Positions 3,370 to 37,982 of a DNA stretch of 64,000 bases are shown piece after piece. The number at the start of each line of letters is the position of its first letter. Positions within the stretch are counted from its first letter, which is position 1. The stretch covers positions 65,424,118 through 65,488,117 of the forward strand of contig CM060190.1 of NCBI GenBank assembly GCA_030549335.1, read 5' to 3'. Origin of the DNA: Pontederia crassipes (lineage: Eukaryota; Streptophyta; Magnoliopsida; Commelinales; Pontederiaceae). A program made the translations under genes and the position numbers. The notes under the pieces were generated by a model, which saw nothing but the letters and a program-made list of their open reading frames with translations, searched no databases and was not told where the DNA came from.

Positions 3370-6300
3370 ATGTCATCCGCGGCAAGGAAGCGGCCGAAGG
3401 GAAGGGTGAAAGATTCCGCTCCGCCACCGCTCGCCGGCCTCCTAGGAGAGCCCTCCTCCACCCTCTTCCCTTCGAAGGGGGAGCTTCTCAAGGTCGTCGC
3501 CGTGGTCGTCATCGCGGCCGTCGTCGCCGCTGTCTGCAATAACGTTGCTCTCTTCTTCAACCGCCAGCCGAAGGCTTTCTGCGACAGCTCCACTGAAGAA
3601 GGTTCCCAAGATATCGTTTCAGGTGTTGATCCTTTCTCAAATTTTCTGCCCGTCGTTCATGTTTTGGACTTTGCTGATGATTTTATGCAAAAACGCTATT
3701 TTGAAAAGTAAAGTTCTTGACACTGAAACCAAAAAATTTTTTTTTTTTCCATGATGAGAGGGACGAAGTACGTAGAACAAGAAACAATCATGGTTAATAA
3801 TGATGTAACACTAGAAAAGAAAAGACTTCGTGTGATCCTGCTGGCACATAGCTAACCTATCTTTTCAATGCGACAATTTCGTTGATGCCTAAAATTGCAG
3901 ATTACTGTGTACCATGTCCTGAAAATGGACAATGCACTGGTGGCAAGTTGGAATGCTTTGCTGGATTCAAGGCGCAGGGAAGGAAATGCGTGGAAGATGA
4001 AGCAGTTAGTGGAACTGCAGGGGCAATTGTGCGTGCTTGATATGTTTGTTCCTTTGAGCTTAACTTACAATAGTTTCACGAGTTAAGATCTCTATTGCTA
4101 ATGCATGTGTGTAAATTTTGATGCAGTCCAAGCTTCTACAAGACCAGATTTGTGATGCATATGCACGAGTTTTGTGCAACGAGCCTGGGAATATCTGGGT
4201 CCGTTATCATGACCAACTTCATCGTTTTCATGCAACTTATAAGTAGGAATTTCTGGTATAGAATTGCCTTCATTATAAGTGCAAGTGCCTTCTGTAAACA
4301 CAATGGACACCATGGTGATTGTTTCTTGAATGATCTTCTCAGTTTCAAGAGAGTGATATAATCAACATAATCAATGAACACATGACCAAGGATAAACTTG
4401 GCTGGAGACTTCACACCATCACATTTACAAAACAGAGGGCATTGGAAGCTGCAGAAAATTCTCTGGAAACAAGGACACTTCTCAATGGGTATGTCATATG
4501 TTGCCTTTTCTTTAATATCTAAAAAAGTCCAAGGTTCCTTAGAAACTGCACAGCTGCTGCTTTGTGAATTTATCATCTCTTGGTTTGTATAGGAGTAAAG
4601 AATTTAAATGTCCAGAATTGCTGGCTGAACTCCATAAACCTCTGCAATGCCAAGCCCGTCAATGGATCTATAAAAATGCTCTAGTTCTGATTATAATTTT
4701 CTGTATGGTATATGACCTCAAATCGCCCTTCTTGAACCTATTTTACTACAATGCATAACACTGATTCATGTTTAAAATCTATACAGATTTTAGGTTCAAC
4801 GATATTCTTGCTGAACTTGCGTCAAAAGAGAAATGTCTTAGTTAGAGCTGAGCAATTATATGAGGAGGTAATCTTATAGCTTTATTTATCTTCAACCAAC
4901 ACAATTATCATTGTTCACCTCTATGGTTGATGTATATATACAATAATAAGCTGACAGTATAATTTTTGCCATTGTTATTATCCATTAAGTTTAGTCAAAT
5001 ACTTTATCCTTTTCTGTCTTAAAGACAATTATTACGGTTACTGCTCTTTTTCTTTTCTTTTTTTTTTGGGGTGGTGGGTGGGGGGGTGGGTAGCTTTATA
5101 ATCGCTCTCGGGCCTCATATAACTTACTTTCTCCTACTTTGGGTACATGCTCCCACTAATATTGTTTTTTGTTTTACAACTTATAAAGTTGTATTTTAAT
5201 TCTTATTTGTAGAGTGAGGAACCTCTCATTTTAATCATGTATTAATTTCTGTGATTTATCTTTGTAGTTCAATAGCCTTTCTTTTGGGGGTATGTGCTAT
5301 CAACAAATTTGTAATGGCCCAAATTATTTAACCTCTTTGTCATTTTCCTTTGCCCTCATGCCATGTTATGGGGACTGGGAACACATTCGTTTTTGTCAAA
5401 GTTTCTTGAATCTTGTTATGCACTCTTTACATCATTCTTTTTTTTCTATTTTGAGGGAATGCGATGTAGGACAAGAATAGAATTATGGCCCATTAGCTTA
5501 GTCTTCCTTATATTATATTTCTTTTAATTAGTTTAACTTTTATTACTTTTCCTTTTATTCAGGTTTCCTTGTTATTTGAGTACTTAGAACCTTATAAATA
5601 CCCTCTATTGGTTGTATTAGAAGATAGACTTGATTTATAATCACTGCTCAGGCCATAGTTTTATAATCACTGCTCAGGCCTCATATAACTTACTTTCTCC
5701 TACCTTGGGTACATGCTCCCACTCATGGTTGTCAAAAACGCGTGTTAACTCGTAAAAGCGTACGATTTTACGTCTTCACCTTTGCATTTTGTGCTCCATC
5801 TCACCCGGAAACGTTTTTGGCCAGCACGCGATAGAATCGCGTGCTGGCCCGTAGAATCGGTGGAGACGCACGACTCCACCGATCCCACAATATATATTTT
5901 TTTTAATGTTTTATAAGCGTGATAACTCCGCCTATATTTTATAGCCGGTCCCAAGCCCGGATAAAGGAGGAGGGTTGTGTTAGGCCCCGACAGCCAGCAT
6001 AAAATCCTGTCGAATCTTATGAACATGGATCAACGAATAGCGTCGTATGATCCATGTAGCCGACCCCACCTAGTGGGATAAGGCTTTGTTGTTGTTGTTG
6101 TTTTATAAGCGTGATAGAACTCCGCCTATATTTTATAGCCGGTCCCAAGCCCGGATAAAGGAGGAGGGTTGTGTTAGGCCCCGACAGCCAGCATAAAATC
6201 CTGTCGAATCTTATGAATATGGATCAACGAATTCGTCGTATGATCCATGTAGCCGACCCCACCTAGTGGGATAAGGTTTTGTTGTTGTTGTTGTTGTTGT

Positions 6301-33815: not shown

Positions 33816-34718
33816 CAGAAAAAATTCACTTTGCTTTGGCATCTATCTCCTTAGAGTTGCAACATTTTCTTTCTGTTATGTGATCGTCTTATCAGATATG
33901 AGATGTAATCTTTTCTTTATGCAAAGTATCCCGCTTGATGCGCAGCCGAGCAAAGTCATAACCAAGCAAAAACTTTCGGATTGATTAGCTCTAAGTCTTG
34001 GAGCAGATGGTGACATTGCTATTTATAGAACCAGGTAAGGCGAGAGATCTGAAGTGGGCTTCTGATTTGATGGCTGCTGGTGACTCTGATTGCAGTCCTG
34101 GCTTTTCAAGAGACCCATCAAAATGTTTTACGAGTCTTTCATGATCCTGTACATATATTACAGACAAAGAAGCTTAGTTCTACAAACAAAAAAAAAAAGG
34201 GAATGTTAAAGATAATGTAAAAACAAAATCTTTTCGCCTTGGGGTGACCCGTTCATCTGCTCAGGTTCTGTATAGTATGAAGGCACAAACGGGGATGATA
34301 ATGCTTGGATTGGCTTACGAGATTCAGGGATTCAATAGACCTTGAATCCGCAATCAATTTGTTAAATAATCAATCATTTATTGGTGAAATGTGAATTTAT
34401 TTTATACGTTATCATGTTTTAATAACACAAATGGATTCTGCTTACGAATGAACATTGAAAAATTACAGTGACTCCGGTTGGCTCTCCCTATCGATTGAAT
34501 AACATTCTCAAATGATATAAAAGTTGAGAAAAAAACCCCATATAAACTTTTCAGAGTATATCTTTTATTATTTACTTTTTCCGACTCCAAGGGCTCCATT
34601 AAAGTAATCCCTGAAACAAAAATGATATATAAAATTCAGGATCATGATTTAATTCAAGGCCTATTAGCCTATCCGAAAGTGTCTGCAATTCATGGAAATC
34701 ACATTACCAAAAGGAATA

Positions 34719-34878
34719 CAACAACAACAAAGCCTTATCCCACTAGGTGAGGTTGGCTATATGGATCATACGACGTCATTCGTTGATCCATGTTCATGCG
34801 ATTCGACAAGGTTTTACGCTGGCTGTCGGGGCCTAACACAACCCTCCTCCTTTATCCGGGCTTGGGACCGGCTATGAA
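34719..34878 (-). mobile_element. SINE-like (TTG)n-tailed element, copy D
   Basis: Minus strand: from catagccggtcccaagcccg through ggaggagggttgtgttaggc and ggatcaacgaatgacgtcgt to cctagtgggataaggctttg and the TTG tail. It is nearly full-length, lacking about 20 bases at the 5' end. It forms the 3' half of the chimeric insertion. Confidence 0.75.
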
Positions 34879-34964
34879 ATATATCAAGATCATCTGCCAA
34901 AAAGTCTTGAATCTGACAAAAATATACTATGCAAGCATAATGAACATAATACTTACGGGATGCC

Positions 34965-35064
34965 ACCATGGAAAGGAGGTGGCTCAACAGAGCCAAAAAA
35001 ACGAGGATCATTGGGACCTACAAGCATGCCACCACCTCCTCCCAAACCCCTATTAGGATAAAAG
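34965..35064 (-). pseudogene. Fragment of a proteasome regulator PI31-like gene (one exon part plus donor)
   Basis: Minus-strand translation reads FYPNRGLGGGGGMLVGPNDP, then RFFGSVEPPPFHGGIP, then an intact gtaagt donor. The GGGMLVGPNDPRFF motif is characteristic of the C-terminal glycine/proline-rich part of plant PI31-type proteasome inhibitors. The rest of the gene (N-terminal domain and the usual PPGARFDPYGPP region) is not found nearby. It is therefore a captured fragment, not a working gene. Confidence 0.7.
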
Positions 35065-35530
35065 CCAAAAGGAATATTTTCTTATATAAGAATATAAAGA
35101 ATGGCTGCGGATGAAAAATTCAAATCTGGTTCTTTGCATCTACCACTCATACTTCTGATGGCTATAGCAAAAGATGGTGACATATCGTTAGTGTTGCTAA
35201 CTGCTACCTTTAATGATACTGAGGCATGTGCTGGTACCTTGGATTTGTACTAAATATGTGATCCTATGCAATCTTTTTTCACAAGTTTGATAAATATCTG
35301 ATTCTCAAGATTTTGATGCGTAGATGACAAAGAAGCCAAGGATAAATAAAATGACCAATCTTTGACTTAGTGAAGTGATGTTCCTTTCACATAACACTTT
35401 GCACTTATAATGTTTACCTCCAAAAAAGGAAGAAAAGACACATTGTCTACTTACTGGGGGACTCATCTTGATACGATAATTAAGATTTAAGAGGCAAGGT
35501 ATGAATAGATTTAAGAGGTAAGGTATGAAT

Positions 35531-35680
35531 AAGCCCGGATAAAGGAGGAGGGTTGTGTTAGGCCCCGACAGTCAGCGTAAAACCCTGTCGAATCTCATGA
35601 ACATGGATCAACGAAGCGTCGTATGATCCATATAGCCGACCCCACCTAATGGGATAAGGCTTTGTTGTTGTTGTTGTATA
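35531..35680 (+). mobile_element. SINE-like (TTG)n-tailed element, copy E, 5'-truncated
   Basis: It begins at aagcccggataaaggaggag, lacking the first 30 or so bases, and ends in the usual TTG tail near 35680. Just before it, the 24-bp sequence gatttaagaggYaaggtatg is repeated twice in tandem. No clear target duplication. Confidence 0.7.
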
Positions 35681-35933
35681 AGTATATAACTAGCATTGTT
35701 TTCCTTTTCAATGATACAAATTTATTTTCATCATCTAGGAACAAAAGCATGGACATTTACTTGAATTTCCATCTGTGGATAAATGATAATTACAAGCCCA
35801 TGGCTGTTCAGTTTTATTTTCGATTTACAAAGAATCCAAAAGAACCTTAATACAAGGCACTGAAGAAAACAAAAGTGTAAGTAAGAATCACACCTCCAAT
35901 CAATACCGAAAGTGTATGCCACTTGTTAATATC

Positions 35934-37982
35934 CTATTCAGGTTTAGGTATAAGATTCTCCTGGATGTCTGGACATAGATAGGAATCATCTCCTGACTTG
36001 TTAACCTTGCAGTCATCAAGATATTTCTGATAGACGTAAGTGAAAAATCCCCATACTGCGAGCAGCAATGAAATGATCTTGACGCCATCCATTTTGTCGT
36101 GAAAGAAGACAACAGCAAAGAAAGGCACTATAGGCAGGGCAAGGGTGCTGATTGCATTAGAGAACAGGGAGGACACCATAAAGATGAGACCCACAACTCC
36201 AATAGAAGCCATTTGCCATGACACAGCAACACCAACATTGGTCAATATGTATGATACCACCCCCTTCTTGTAACCCTTCATTTCTTCATTTAGACCCCTC
36301 CACTCCCCGCTGGCAAAGATACCGATGACAGCAACAACAGAAGTCACAAGTGCCGTATATATTTGCATTTCCAGTACAACCGAGAAGGTCTCTCTCCTGA
36401 TCACTTTTTCAAAGGTGAGTTGCATCAGGGAAAGGATGAGGGAGTAGGTGGCTGATGCCCCTAATGTCAACACAAAGCCAAGAATGGGCTTCTCAGTTGA
36501 GACATCAGCCGTCCCCCCTGATTCTTCATTCATGCCCAGTAGGGCAGCCGACATCGTCAACACCGCGACGGAGTTCAATATCAAGGCAGTAAACTTGTCG
36601 TTATTGATAAAATAAGAGAAGATAGCATTGAAAGCAAGTTGGCTGGCACAAACAAGGGAGTAGGTTGATACAGGAAGGTATAGTAAACCATAGGAGTACA
36701 TCAAGTTGTCACCAGCTATGATGAGGCCCAGTGCGATATATATCAAAGCCATCTTGGCAATATGAGGCTGAGGTGCAGATGCAACAGCTTCATATGATGA
36801 AGATGTGTGAGTTGAAGGGAAAAAGAAGAGGGGAAAGAAGAGGATAGGAAAGCCAGCAGTTTGGACAAGCGTGGCCAGCCATTTGCTGTTGCCTCCTTGG
36901 TCATAATAAAATCTGCCGAGCAACACAGCTGCAGTTTGGCCAGCAAGGAGAAAGAAGATATTGAATGCCACCACGATCCACCATCGGAAACGCCAGCCCA
37001 TGGAAGTAGATGATGATGATACTTGTCCAATAGCTCCACTTGTAAGTTTTGATTGCTCTGGAGTTGAAAACACAAATAGTCTTATTGAGTCATCTATGAG
37101 AAATGATCATCATTGAAACTTAACACGAGCTCATTAGATTCAGAACTTATACAAATTTAAGACTTGTAATTTCAAGTGTTTCTTCAGGCAGTACAAGTGC
37201 CCCTCAAAGTAAATCTATCGCGAACTTTAGTCACTTAAATAAAATTCAAAATCACTCGAGCTAAGTGCTAAATATTCTACCTTTATTATTGGTTAAGTAT
37301 ACAAAGGAGAAAGCTTGGCCTAAATCAATTTTAAAAACCACACTACATGCAAAAAGGTTATCAATTTCTTCTTGGTTCTCTTTGATGTGAATTTTCACCC
37401 TAATAACATTCTTGTATCTTGTTTTTGTTCTTTTCCTCCCTAATGGTTCTTTGTTCAAATGTACAAGTGCTCTATAGAAAAAAAAGAACTCAGCATAACT
37501 ATTATGACCAGGGATTAAAATTATATGTTAGTTCACAAGTTTAATGCAAAAAAGTATCTTTACTTCTTAGATAAATAAAAAAACTAAGACATCTAAAACG
37601 GCTGAACGATGCTTGTGTTGCTCCTTTTTCATGGTCAAGCTTCTTCGTTCATTGAGATAAAATTGGGGAAACCTTGTCATACCCGATACAGAGATGAGGT
37701 GATCCCAATTTCTCATCCTTACTCGCAACTCCTTATACCACATAAATTTCTTTCCATTATGGAAGAAAACAAGAACTATTCTGCTACAAGCCCTTCGTAA
37801 ACACAACTAATTGTAATAGCAACTAAACGAAGGACTACTAATGTAGAAAAACAAACAAAAGAAGAAAAAATATGAGAGGGAACGAATCGCTAGTGACCAG
37901 GAACAGGAGGAAAAAAGTTCAGGGTCTCACCCGAGATGTCCATGCAGACATGTTCGAGGCCTGTGCTATCGGCCCTCACCAT
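35934..37982 (-). CDS. PUP: Purine permease, PUP array copy 1
   Basis: Exon 1 is 37931-37982 (MVRADSTGLEHVCMDIS), intron 873 bp, exon 2 is 35934-37057; total 391 aa. The protein has about ten hydrophobic segments and the family signatures LLAGQTAAVLLGRFYYDQGG, YSYGLLYLPVSTYSLVCASQ, LAFNAIFSYF and SLFSNAISTLALPIVPFFAV. It belongs to the plant PUP group of the drug/metabolite transporter superfamily, which moves adenine, cytokinins and related bases with protons across membranes (family knowledge). The exact substrate cannot be read from sequence. The closest relatives are the two neighbours in the array. Its codons are clearly less G+C-rich than those of copies 2 and 3. Confidence 0.9.

What the first reader, a model, noticed from the sequence alone, without database searches (positions are those of the whole stretch)
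34707..35076. A SINE appears to have carried an upstream host exon (PI31) with it
A 12-bp direct repeat exactly brackets a unit that, on the minus strand, starts inside a PI31-type exon, passes an intact splice donor and intron-like bases, and ends with a SINE and its TTG tail. This fits 5' transduction: an unspliced RNA reading through a SINE in a PI31 intron was reverse-transcribed from the tail and inserted. SINE 5' transduction of coding DNA is seldom described in plants.
Basis: partly seen in the sequence, partly recalled or inferred. Interest (0 to 1): 0.75.

Follow-up and report, generated by a model that had tools for sequence, protein, structure and literature searches.

The report
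Plant SINE that carried spliced host exons
A short plant retrotransposon sitting in an intron of a proteasome-regulator gene was copied together with the gene's spliced upstream exons and pasted at four new places, a kind of exon-moving event that a 2026 review says had not been reported in plants.

Summary
Window 34719-35064 (minus strand) is a 346-bp unit between perfect 12-bp direct repeats. Three PI31 paralogs lack the SINE there. So a partly spliced pre-mRNA was reverse-transcribed from the SINE tail. Three further copies exist; two have related empty sites and inserted with a small target deletion or almost no duplication. It is not isolated: of 52 young SINE copies, 5 have a distant TSD on inspection and a sixth (L007) shares a long flank; one passenger holds two spliced Sec23/Sec24-trunk exons. 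Source tests are mixed: two of six show the SINE in the source, four do not, so template jumping may be a second route. Read-through 5' transduction is firm for the PI31 unit; how general it is remains open.

The parts
34707..34718 (.). Target-site duplication, copy 1 (CCAAAAGGAATA), next to the SINE tail
   Evidence: 12/12 match to 35065-35076
34719..34873 (-). SINE (Au-like; the name is recalled), 5'-truncated as in the donor, with TTG tail at 34719-34730
   Evidence: 95.8% to the SINE query over positions 10-174, the first few letters being donor TSD; same SINE at the C18 donor
34874..34890 (-). Donor-locus TSD copy (ATCTTGATATATTTCAT on the minus strand) carried along from C18
   Evidence: The same 17 bp lie on both sides of the SINE at C18; the paralogs have the stretch once, C7 with one change
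34874..34956 (-). Retained 5' part of the PI31 intron, starting GTAAGT (includes 34874-34890)
   Evidence: Aligned to C18 L021 and three paralogs
34957..35017 (-). PI31 exon (61 nt; GPNDPRFFGSVEPPPFHGGIP)
   Evidence: Pfam PF08577
35018..35049 (-). PI31 32-nt exon, joined without its two flanking introns
   Evidence: Introns of 79 and 81 bp (GT...AG) at L021 5508-5586 and 5619-5699 are absent here
35050..35064 (-). Last 15 nt of the preceding PI31 exon; 5' end of the unit
   Evidence: Base A in CCTAATAG occurs in C18 and in the window, C5 and C7 copies; the three paralogs have G
35065..35076 (.). Target-site duplication, copy 2
35085..35097 (.). Imperfect TSD (TATAAGAATATAA) of the adjacent second chimera
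   Evidence: 12/13 to 35677-35689, read from the sequence; A+T-rich, so weaker evidence; the automatic scan did not report it
35092..35508 (+). Second chimera: 417 bp matching C5:56042571 and C6:13344495, with no SINE at that point there
   Evidence: 98.8% and 97.6%
35507..35530 (+). 24-bp near-repeat of the preceding 24 bp, single in the two source-like loci
35531..35676 (+). 5'-truncated SINE of the second chimera, TTG tail
   Evidence: SINE positions 30-174
35677..35689 (.). Imperfect TSD (TATAAGTATATAA), second copy

Best explanation
A SINE inserted in sense orientation into an intron of the C18 PI31 gene, its tail 24 nt from the intron's 3' end (shown). A pre-mRNA of that gene lost two upstream introns but kept the SINE-bearing one (shown by exact exon-exon junctions plus retained intron). 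A LINE-type reverse transcriptase started at the SINE's TTG tail inside this longer RNA and copied backwards through SINE, intron and three exons (start at the tail shown by the 3' ends; the enzyme is inferred). The cDNA was integrated in the window by target-primed reverse transcription, leaving a 12-bp TSD (TSD shown, mechanism inferred). Three more copies of the chimera come from the same source. In two of these the 5' join falls at shared CTTTT/TTTTA letters, which is a likely reason why copies start at nearly the same base (inferred).
For: Donor with the SINE at the identical junction and its own TSD, three paralogs without it. A donor-specific exon base and a donor-specific intron base (GGCAGATG, where the paralogs have AAATG) shared by C18 and the copies. 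Two introns precisely absent, third kept up to the SINE tail. Perfect TSD. Three further copies at 98-99% identity with unrelated flanks. Related empty sites on C6 (87%) and C8 (83%) for the C5 and C7 copies. Intron retention linked to intronic Au SINEs is proposed for wheat genes (PMC5787218, passages read).
Against: Three of the four copies have no ordinary TSD in about 4.4-4.5 kb. Two of them show instead a target deletion of about 17-23 bp, or at most a 4-5 bp duplication, and the third is unexplained. Three copies start within about three nucleotides of one another, which could also mean that one chimera gave rise to the others. The donor has two C-to-T differences from all four copies, read here as later changes in the donor. 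Four of six source loci tested for such chimeras in this genome have no SINE at the junction, so read-through cannot simply be assumed for the others. No RNA data were available.
Confidence: 0.93

Rival explanations
1. The window copy is second-generation: one PI31-SINE chimera formed once by read-through, and then itself was transcribed and copied to the other sites.
For: Same 5' end within about three nucleotides in three of four copies; serial copying seems to occur elsewhere here (L006 to L042 to L007).
Against: No derived base is shared by two or more copies against the donor, apart from two sites where all four agree and the donor differs; a re-transcribed chimera would be expected to drag in upstream flank, and the flanks are unrelated.
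Confidence: 0.15
2. Template jumping: reverse transcriptase copied a SINE RNA and then jumped to a separate PI31 pre-mRNA, so no SINE in the gene was needed.
For: Four other chimeras in this genome have source-like loci without a SINE at the junction (L087, L048, L008 and the second window chimera); LINE-driven template switching makes such fusions in Magnaporthe (PMC2104539, abstract and outline seen).
Against: For PI31 the donor carries the SINE at exactly the same junction, with TSDs.
Confidence: 0.03
3. Decayed resident PI31 gene next to an unrelated SINE.
For: The unit does hold real PI31 coding sequence.
Against: Introns absent, exact TSD, four copies of the same structure at unrelated sites, intron-containing donor elsewhere.
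Confidence: 0.01
4. DNA-level capture or segmental duplication (Pack-type element, Helitron).
For: Gene capture by such elements is well documented in plants (recalled; the review PMC13317346, passages seen, covers the topic).
Against: Intron removal needs an RNA intermediate; outside the unit the copies share only other SINE copies and short repeats.
Confidence: 0.01

Closest known systems
5' transduction by human SVA retrotransposons (as described in PMC13317346, passages; the primary paper PMC2775593 was not held)
   Same: Transcription from a host promoter runs into the element, and upstream host sequence is copied with it; that spliced exons and multi-copy sources occur there is recalled
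   Different: Here a short TTG-tailed plant SINE starts the copy from an intron, inside a longer RNA
Bs1 and Rider gene transduction in plants (passages of PMC13317346)
   Same: Host gene pieces carried by plant retrotransposons
   Different: Those are LTR elements; [quoted passage not shown]
LINE template-switch chimeras (Magnaporthe WEIRD/Mg-SINE/MGL, PMC2104539 abstract)
   Same: Copies of different RNAs fused, one of them a SINE; the tripartite chimera is bounded by 14-bp direct repeats
   Different: No SINE at the source locus is needed; the PI31 donor has one
Au SINE (wheat study PMC5787218, passages)
   Same: TTG-type tail and sequence as recalled; about the same length (181 bp in that paper); intronic copies linked to intron retention
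   Different: No transduction is mentioned in that paper (0 hits for 'transduc')
Processed retrogene
   Same: Spliced exons, TSD
   Different: No poly(A); one intron retained; 3' end is a SINE tail

Membership tests
5' transduction by a non-LTR retroelement | Element at the 3' end, its tail abutting the 3' TSD | tested here: met
   Tail 34719-34730 directly next to 34707-34718
5' transduction by a non-LTR retroelement | Passenger lies directly upstream of the same element at a donor locus | tested here: met
   C18 PI31 intron with SINE and TSD; three paralogs empty
5' transduction by a non-LTR retroelement | RNA intermediate | tested here: met
   Two introns precisely removed
5' transduction by a non-LTR retroelement | TSD flanks passenger plus element | tested here: met
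   12/12 in the window; not met in the C5, C7 and C11 sister copies
Au SINE | TTG-repeat tail and about 180 bp length | tested here: met
   174-nt query covering the body and the first TTG units, TTG tails in the copies scanned; 181 bp in PMC5787218
Au SINE | Sequence match to the reference consensus | not testable with these tools
   No plant repeat library held; the name is recalled; four tail words found in 0 papers
Au SINE | Internal pol III A and B boxes | not tested
   No scan was made
Processed retrogene | All introns removed and a poly(A) tail | tested here: not met
   Third intron retained, TTG tail
LINE template-switch chimera | Source locus of the host part lacks the element at the junction | tested here: not met
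   C18 has it; but L087, L048, L008 and the second window chimera do meet it

The most novel reading that the evidence does not exclude
In this plant an actively spreading SINE family regularly carries upstream sequence, spliced host exons included, at its 5' end: roughly one young copy in ten. It does so both by read-through from introns and by template jumping, and so acts as a standing exon-shuffling engine not previously described in plants.
Probability: 0.5. Interest if true: 0.8.

Novelty: new variant of a known kind. Interest (0 to 1): 0.68.

Why it matters
A 2026 review of gene capture in plants states that 5'-transduction examples have not been reported (PMC13317346, passages). Here is one with its donor, its paralogous empty introns and its spliced junctions in a single genome, plus signs that it recurs. 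It shows that a SINE tail buried inside a pre-mRNA can serve as the start of reverse transcription of upstream exons, giving a concrete route by which intronic plant SINEs can move exons and splice sites. The 52 SINE copies examined are 97-99% identical to one query, so the process is probably recent and could be tested in living populations.

Tried and rejected
Decayed gene and DNA-level capture were rejected on splicing and donor evidence. An RNA stop at the G-rich exon, an exon-junction-complex stop and a new pol III start were considered by thought only for the shared 5' end and set aside: the two empty sites show shared CTTTT/TTTTA letters at the 5' joins, a simpler account. The distal repeats of L049 and L072 lie in locally repetitive sequence (read by eye) and are not counted as solid. 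The 31-bp repeat of L048 is a local tandem duplication; the likely true TSD is 9-10 bp next to a 791-794 bp passenger. L007's 9-bp repeat at 100 bp is taken as spurious; its shared flank with L042 points to a longer passenger whose own TSD was not reached. Truncated SINE ends with distant repeats (L046, L066, L071, L073, L085) were left out, since a partner LINE or another SINE sharing the 3' end could explain them. The target-site letter preference was tabulated but did not separate read-through from template jumping. The empty site of the window copy was sought repeatedly with window:34200-34706 and never answered. The species was not identified. Literature: 10 of 10 paper searches used; no listing showed a plant SINE 5' transduction by title or abstract start, but most subscription papers are not held. 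PMC8764390 was checked by passages only.

Full report
Observation. The window holds CCAAAAGGAATA at 34707-34718 and 35065-35076, exactly bracketing 346 bp. Read on the minus strand, the unit starts CTTTTATCCTAATAGGGGTTTGGG, encodes FYPNRGLGGGGGMLVGPNDPRFFGSVEPPPFHGGIP in one frame, passes GTAAGT and 83 bp of intron (GTAAGT included), and ends in a SINE with a TTG tail. The coding part belongs to the PI31 proteasome-regulator C-terminal family (PF08577, E 1.1e-9).

Donor. A whole-genome search with the unit gave five places that reach into the PI31 part: the window, C5:2669589, C7:43191533, C11:68110289 and C18:184694. A search with the non-SINE part added three PI31 loci on C8:36715663, C17:10543380 and C7:39643667 (8 candidates, all 8 scored). 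At C18 the gene has its introns, and the SINE sits in the intron after the ...FHGGIP exon, in sense orientation, its tail 24 nt from the intron's 3' end, between two copies of ATCTTGATATATTTCAT. The three paralogs have that stretch once (C7 with one change) and no SINE there. The intron is 274 bp at C18 and 91 bp in the C8 paralog.

Splicing. Aligned to C18, the unit lacks two introns of 79 bp (GTTCATTTAT...CTGATTTCAG) and 81 bp (GTAAAGTCTG...AATGATGCAG) exactly at their boundaries, and keeps the third up to the SINE. The window, C5 and C7 copies span both junctions; C11 starts near the first junction, so only its second is clear. The window, C5 and C7 copies share with C18 an A in CCTAATAG where the three paralogs have G, and all four copies share the intron variant GGCAGATG.

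Four copies. Against the donor, the window copy has 3 private substitutions inside the aligned unit, C5 none, C7 one, C11 two, and the donor has two of its own; no substitution is shared by two copies to the exclusion of the others (differences at the 5' edge, columns 0-21, set aside). Outside the unit they share only other SINE copies and short repeats. The window copy has a 12/12 TSD; C5, C7 and C11 have none reaching 10 bp within about 4.4-4.5 kb upstream. Related, presumably homoeologous, empty sites were found for two of them (C6 87%, C8 83%) and read at the junction. At C5 about 17-23 bp of target were lost, and the letters CTTTT are common to target and unit start. At C7 at most 4-5 bp are duplicated, and TTTTA is common to target and unit start. 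So these are true insertions with atypical ends, and shared T-rich letters at the 5' join may explain the nearly equal 5' ends. For C11 only the right flank found relatives, and it lies in a repeat.

Is it a one-off? I took 52 young full-length copies of the SINE: 23 of 35 SINE sites listed (L006-L008, L041-L060) and 29 of the 30 fetched (L061-L089, of 40 scored; L090 dropped as the same place as L053). They are 97.1-99.4% identical to the query. A repeat of the 3' flank lies at or near the SINE's 5' end in 31 (gap up to 18 bp; six of these have 6-18 extra bases), further upstream in 7, and nowhere within 1.0-1.5 kb in 14. With flanks swapped between loci, 20 of 2652 pairs gave an adjacent repeat and 23 of 2652 a distant one at the same thresholds; at score 15 or more, distant repeats are 6 of 52 against 0 of 2652. 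On inspection, five of the seven are solid (L042, L048, L087, L008, and L079, whose 61-bp passenger is mostly another SINE's remnant) and two are doubtful because of local repeats (L049, L072; L072 is among the six at score 15). L048's reported 31-bp match proved to be a local duplication, but its donor boundary lies next to a 9-10 bp repeat. One of the 14 (L007) shares a long flank with L042, which suggests a long passenger, though its own TSD was not reached. That gives five, with L007 six, of 52. The sample is the best-scoring copies of two searches, not a random draw, and passengers longer than the flank fetched are missed.

Sources of those passengers. L042 carries about 389 bp that lie upstream of a normal SINE insertion at L006, and L007 shares 1223 bp, SINE included, with L042 but has another 3' flank, so one likely chain of copies is L006 to L042 to L007. 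L087 carries 116 nt of one exon joined to the next exon of a Sec24-like gene (Sec23_trunk, E 4.7e-22), then its splice donor and intron. The C8 source is 100% identical over both pieces but has about 1.06 kb of intron between them and no SINE at the junction; nor do its paralogs L093 and L095, and L094 was not resolved by the script. L048 carries 791 bp, 99.7% identical to C3, again without a SINE there, with CTA shared at the junction. L008's only relative, on C6, is 96% identical, differs upstream of the TSD boundary, and has no SINE. The block beside the PI31 unit, 35085-35689, is a further chimera whose two source-like loci lack a SINE at the junction. So of six source tests (PI31, L042, L087, L048, L008, second window chimera), two show the SINE in the source and four do not. 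The four could be template jumps or SINE alleles missing from this assembly.

Mechanism. Shown: SINE in the donor intron, splicing upstream, retained intron, 3' end at the SINE tail, TSD. Inferred: a LINE reverse transcriptase began at the SINE tail within a longer RNA, and the SINE's place near the 3' splice site helped the intron to be kept. In wheat, intronic Au SINEs are linked with intron retention, and the authors hypothesize this for plants in general (PMC5787218, passages).

Prior work. [quoted passage not shown] My paper searches (listed in Tried and rejected) showed none either, within open-licence papers only. The label Au for this SINE is recalled from memory and could not be checked against a repeat library.

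Noticed in passing
window 35085-35689: A second SINE chimera in the opposite orientation directly beside the PI31 unit: 417 bp from a C5/C6-like locus, a 24-bp tandem near-repeat, a truncated SINE, and an imperfect 13-bp TSD.
   Followed up: partly
L087:994-1500 (C5:52191897-52192403): SINE copy with two spliced Sec24-like exons, splice donor and intron as 5' passenger, flanked by an 18-bp repeat; the identical source gene on C8 has no SINE at the junction.
   Followed up: yes
L006, L042, L007: Apparent serial transduction: L042 carries the upstream flank of the L006 SINE, and L007 carries L042's flank in turn. By eye, L042's 5' join also has about 20 bp resembling an inverted copy of its TSD.
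   Followed up: partly
L021 332-5096 (C18 PI31 gene): A Copia-like element (by eye from its reading frame) in sense orientation, LTRs 98.4% identical, lies just upstream of the copied PI31 exons, followed by an antisense SINE; it might influence transcription of the donor exons.
   Followed up: no
window 5924-6300: Two SINE copies in tandem sharing the same TSD (GTTTTATAAGCGTGATA three times).
   Followed up: no
L046, L066, L071, L073, L085: Short SINE 3' ends (from positions 112-136 on) with repeats 168-643 bp upstream: possibly the partner LINE or another SINE family sharing the 3' end.
   Followed up: no
window 35955-36398 (-): Coding sequence of a purine nucleobase transporter (PUNUT, E 3.2e-52), about 0.9 kb from the unit.
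   Followed up: partly
L043, L050, L054, L057, L058, L067, L071, L076, L078, L080, L083, L084, L085: Thirteen young full-length SINE copies with no target-site repeat within 1.0-1.5 kb upstream; longer passengers or repeat-less insertion are both possible.
   Followed up: no
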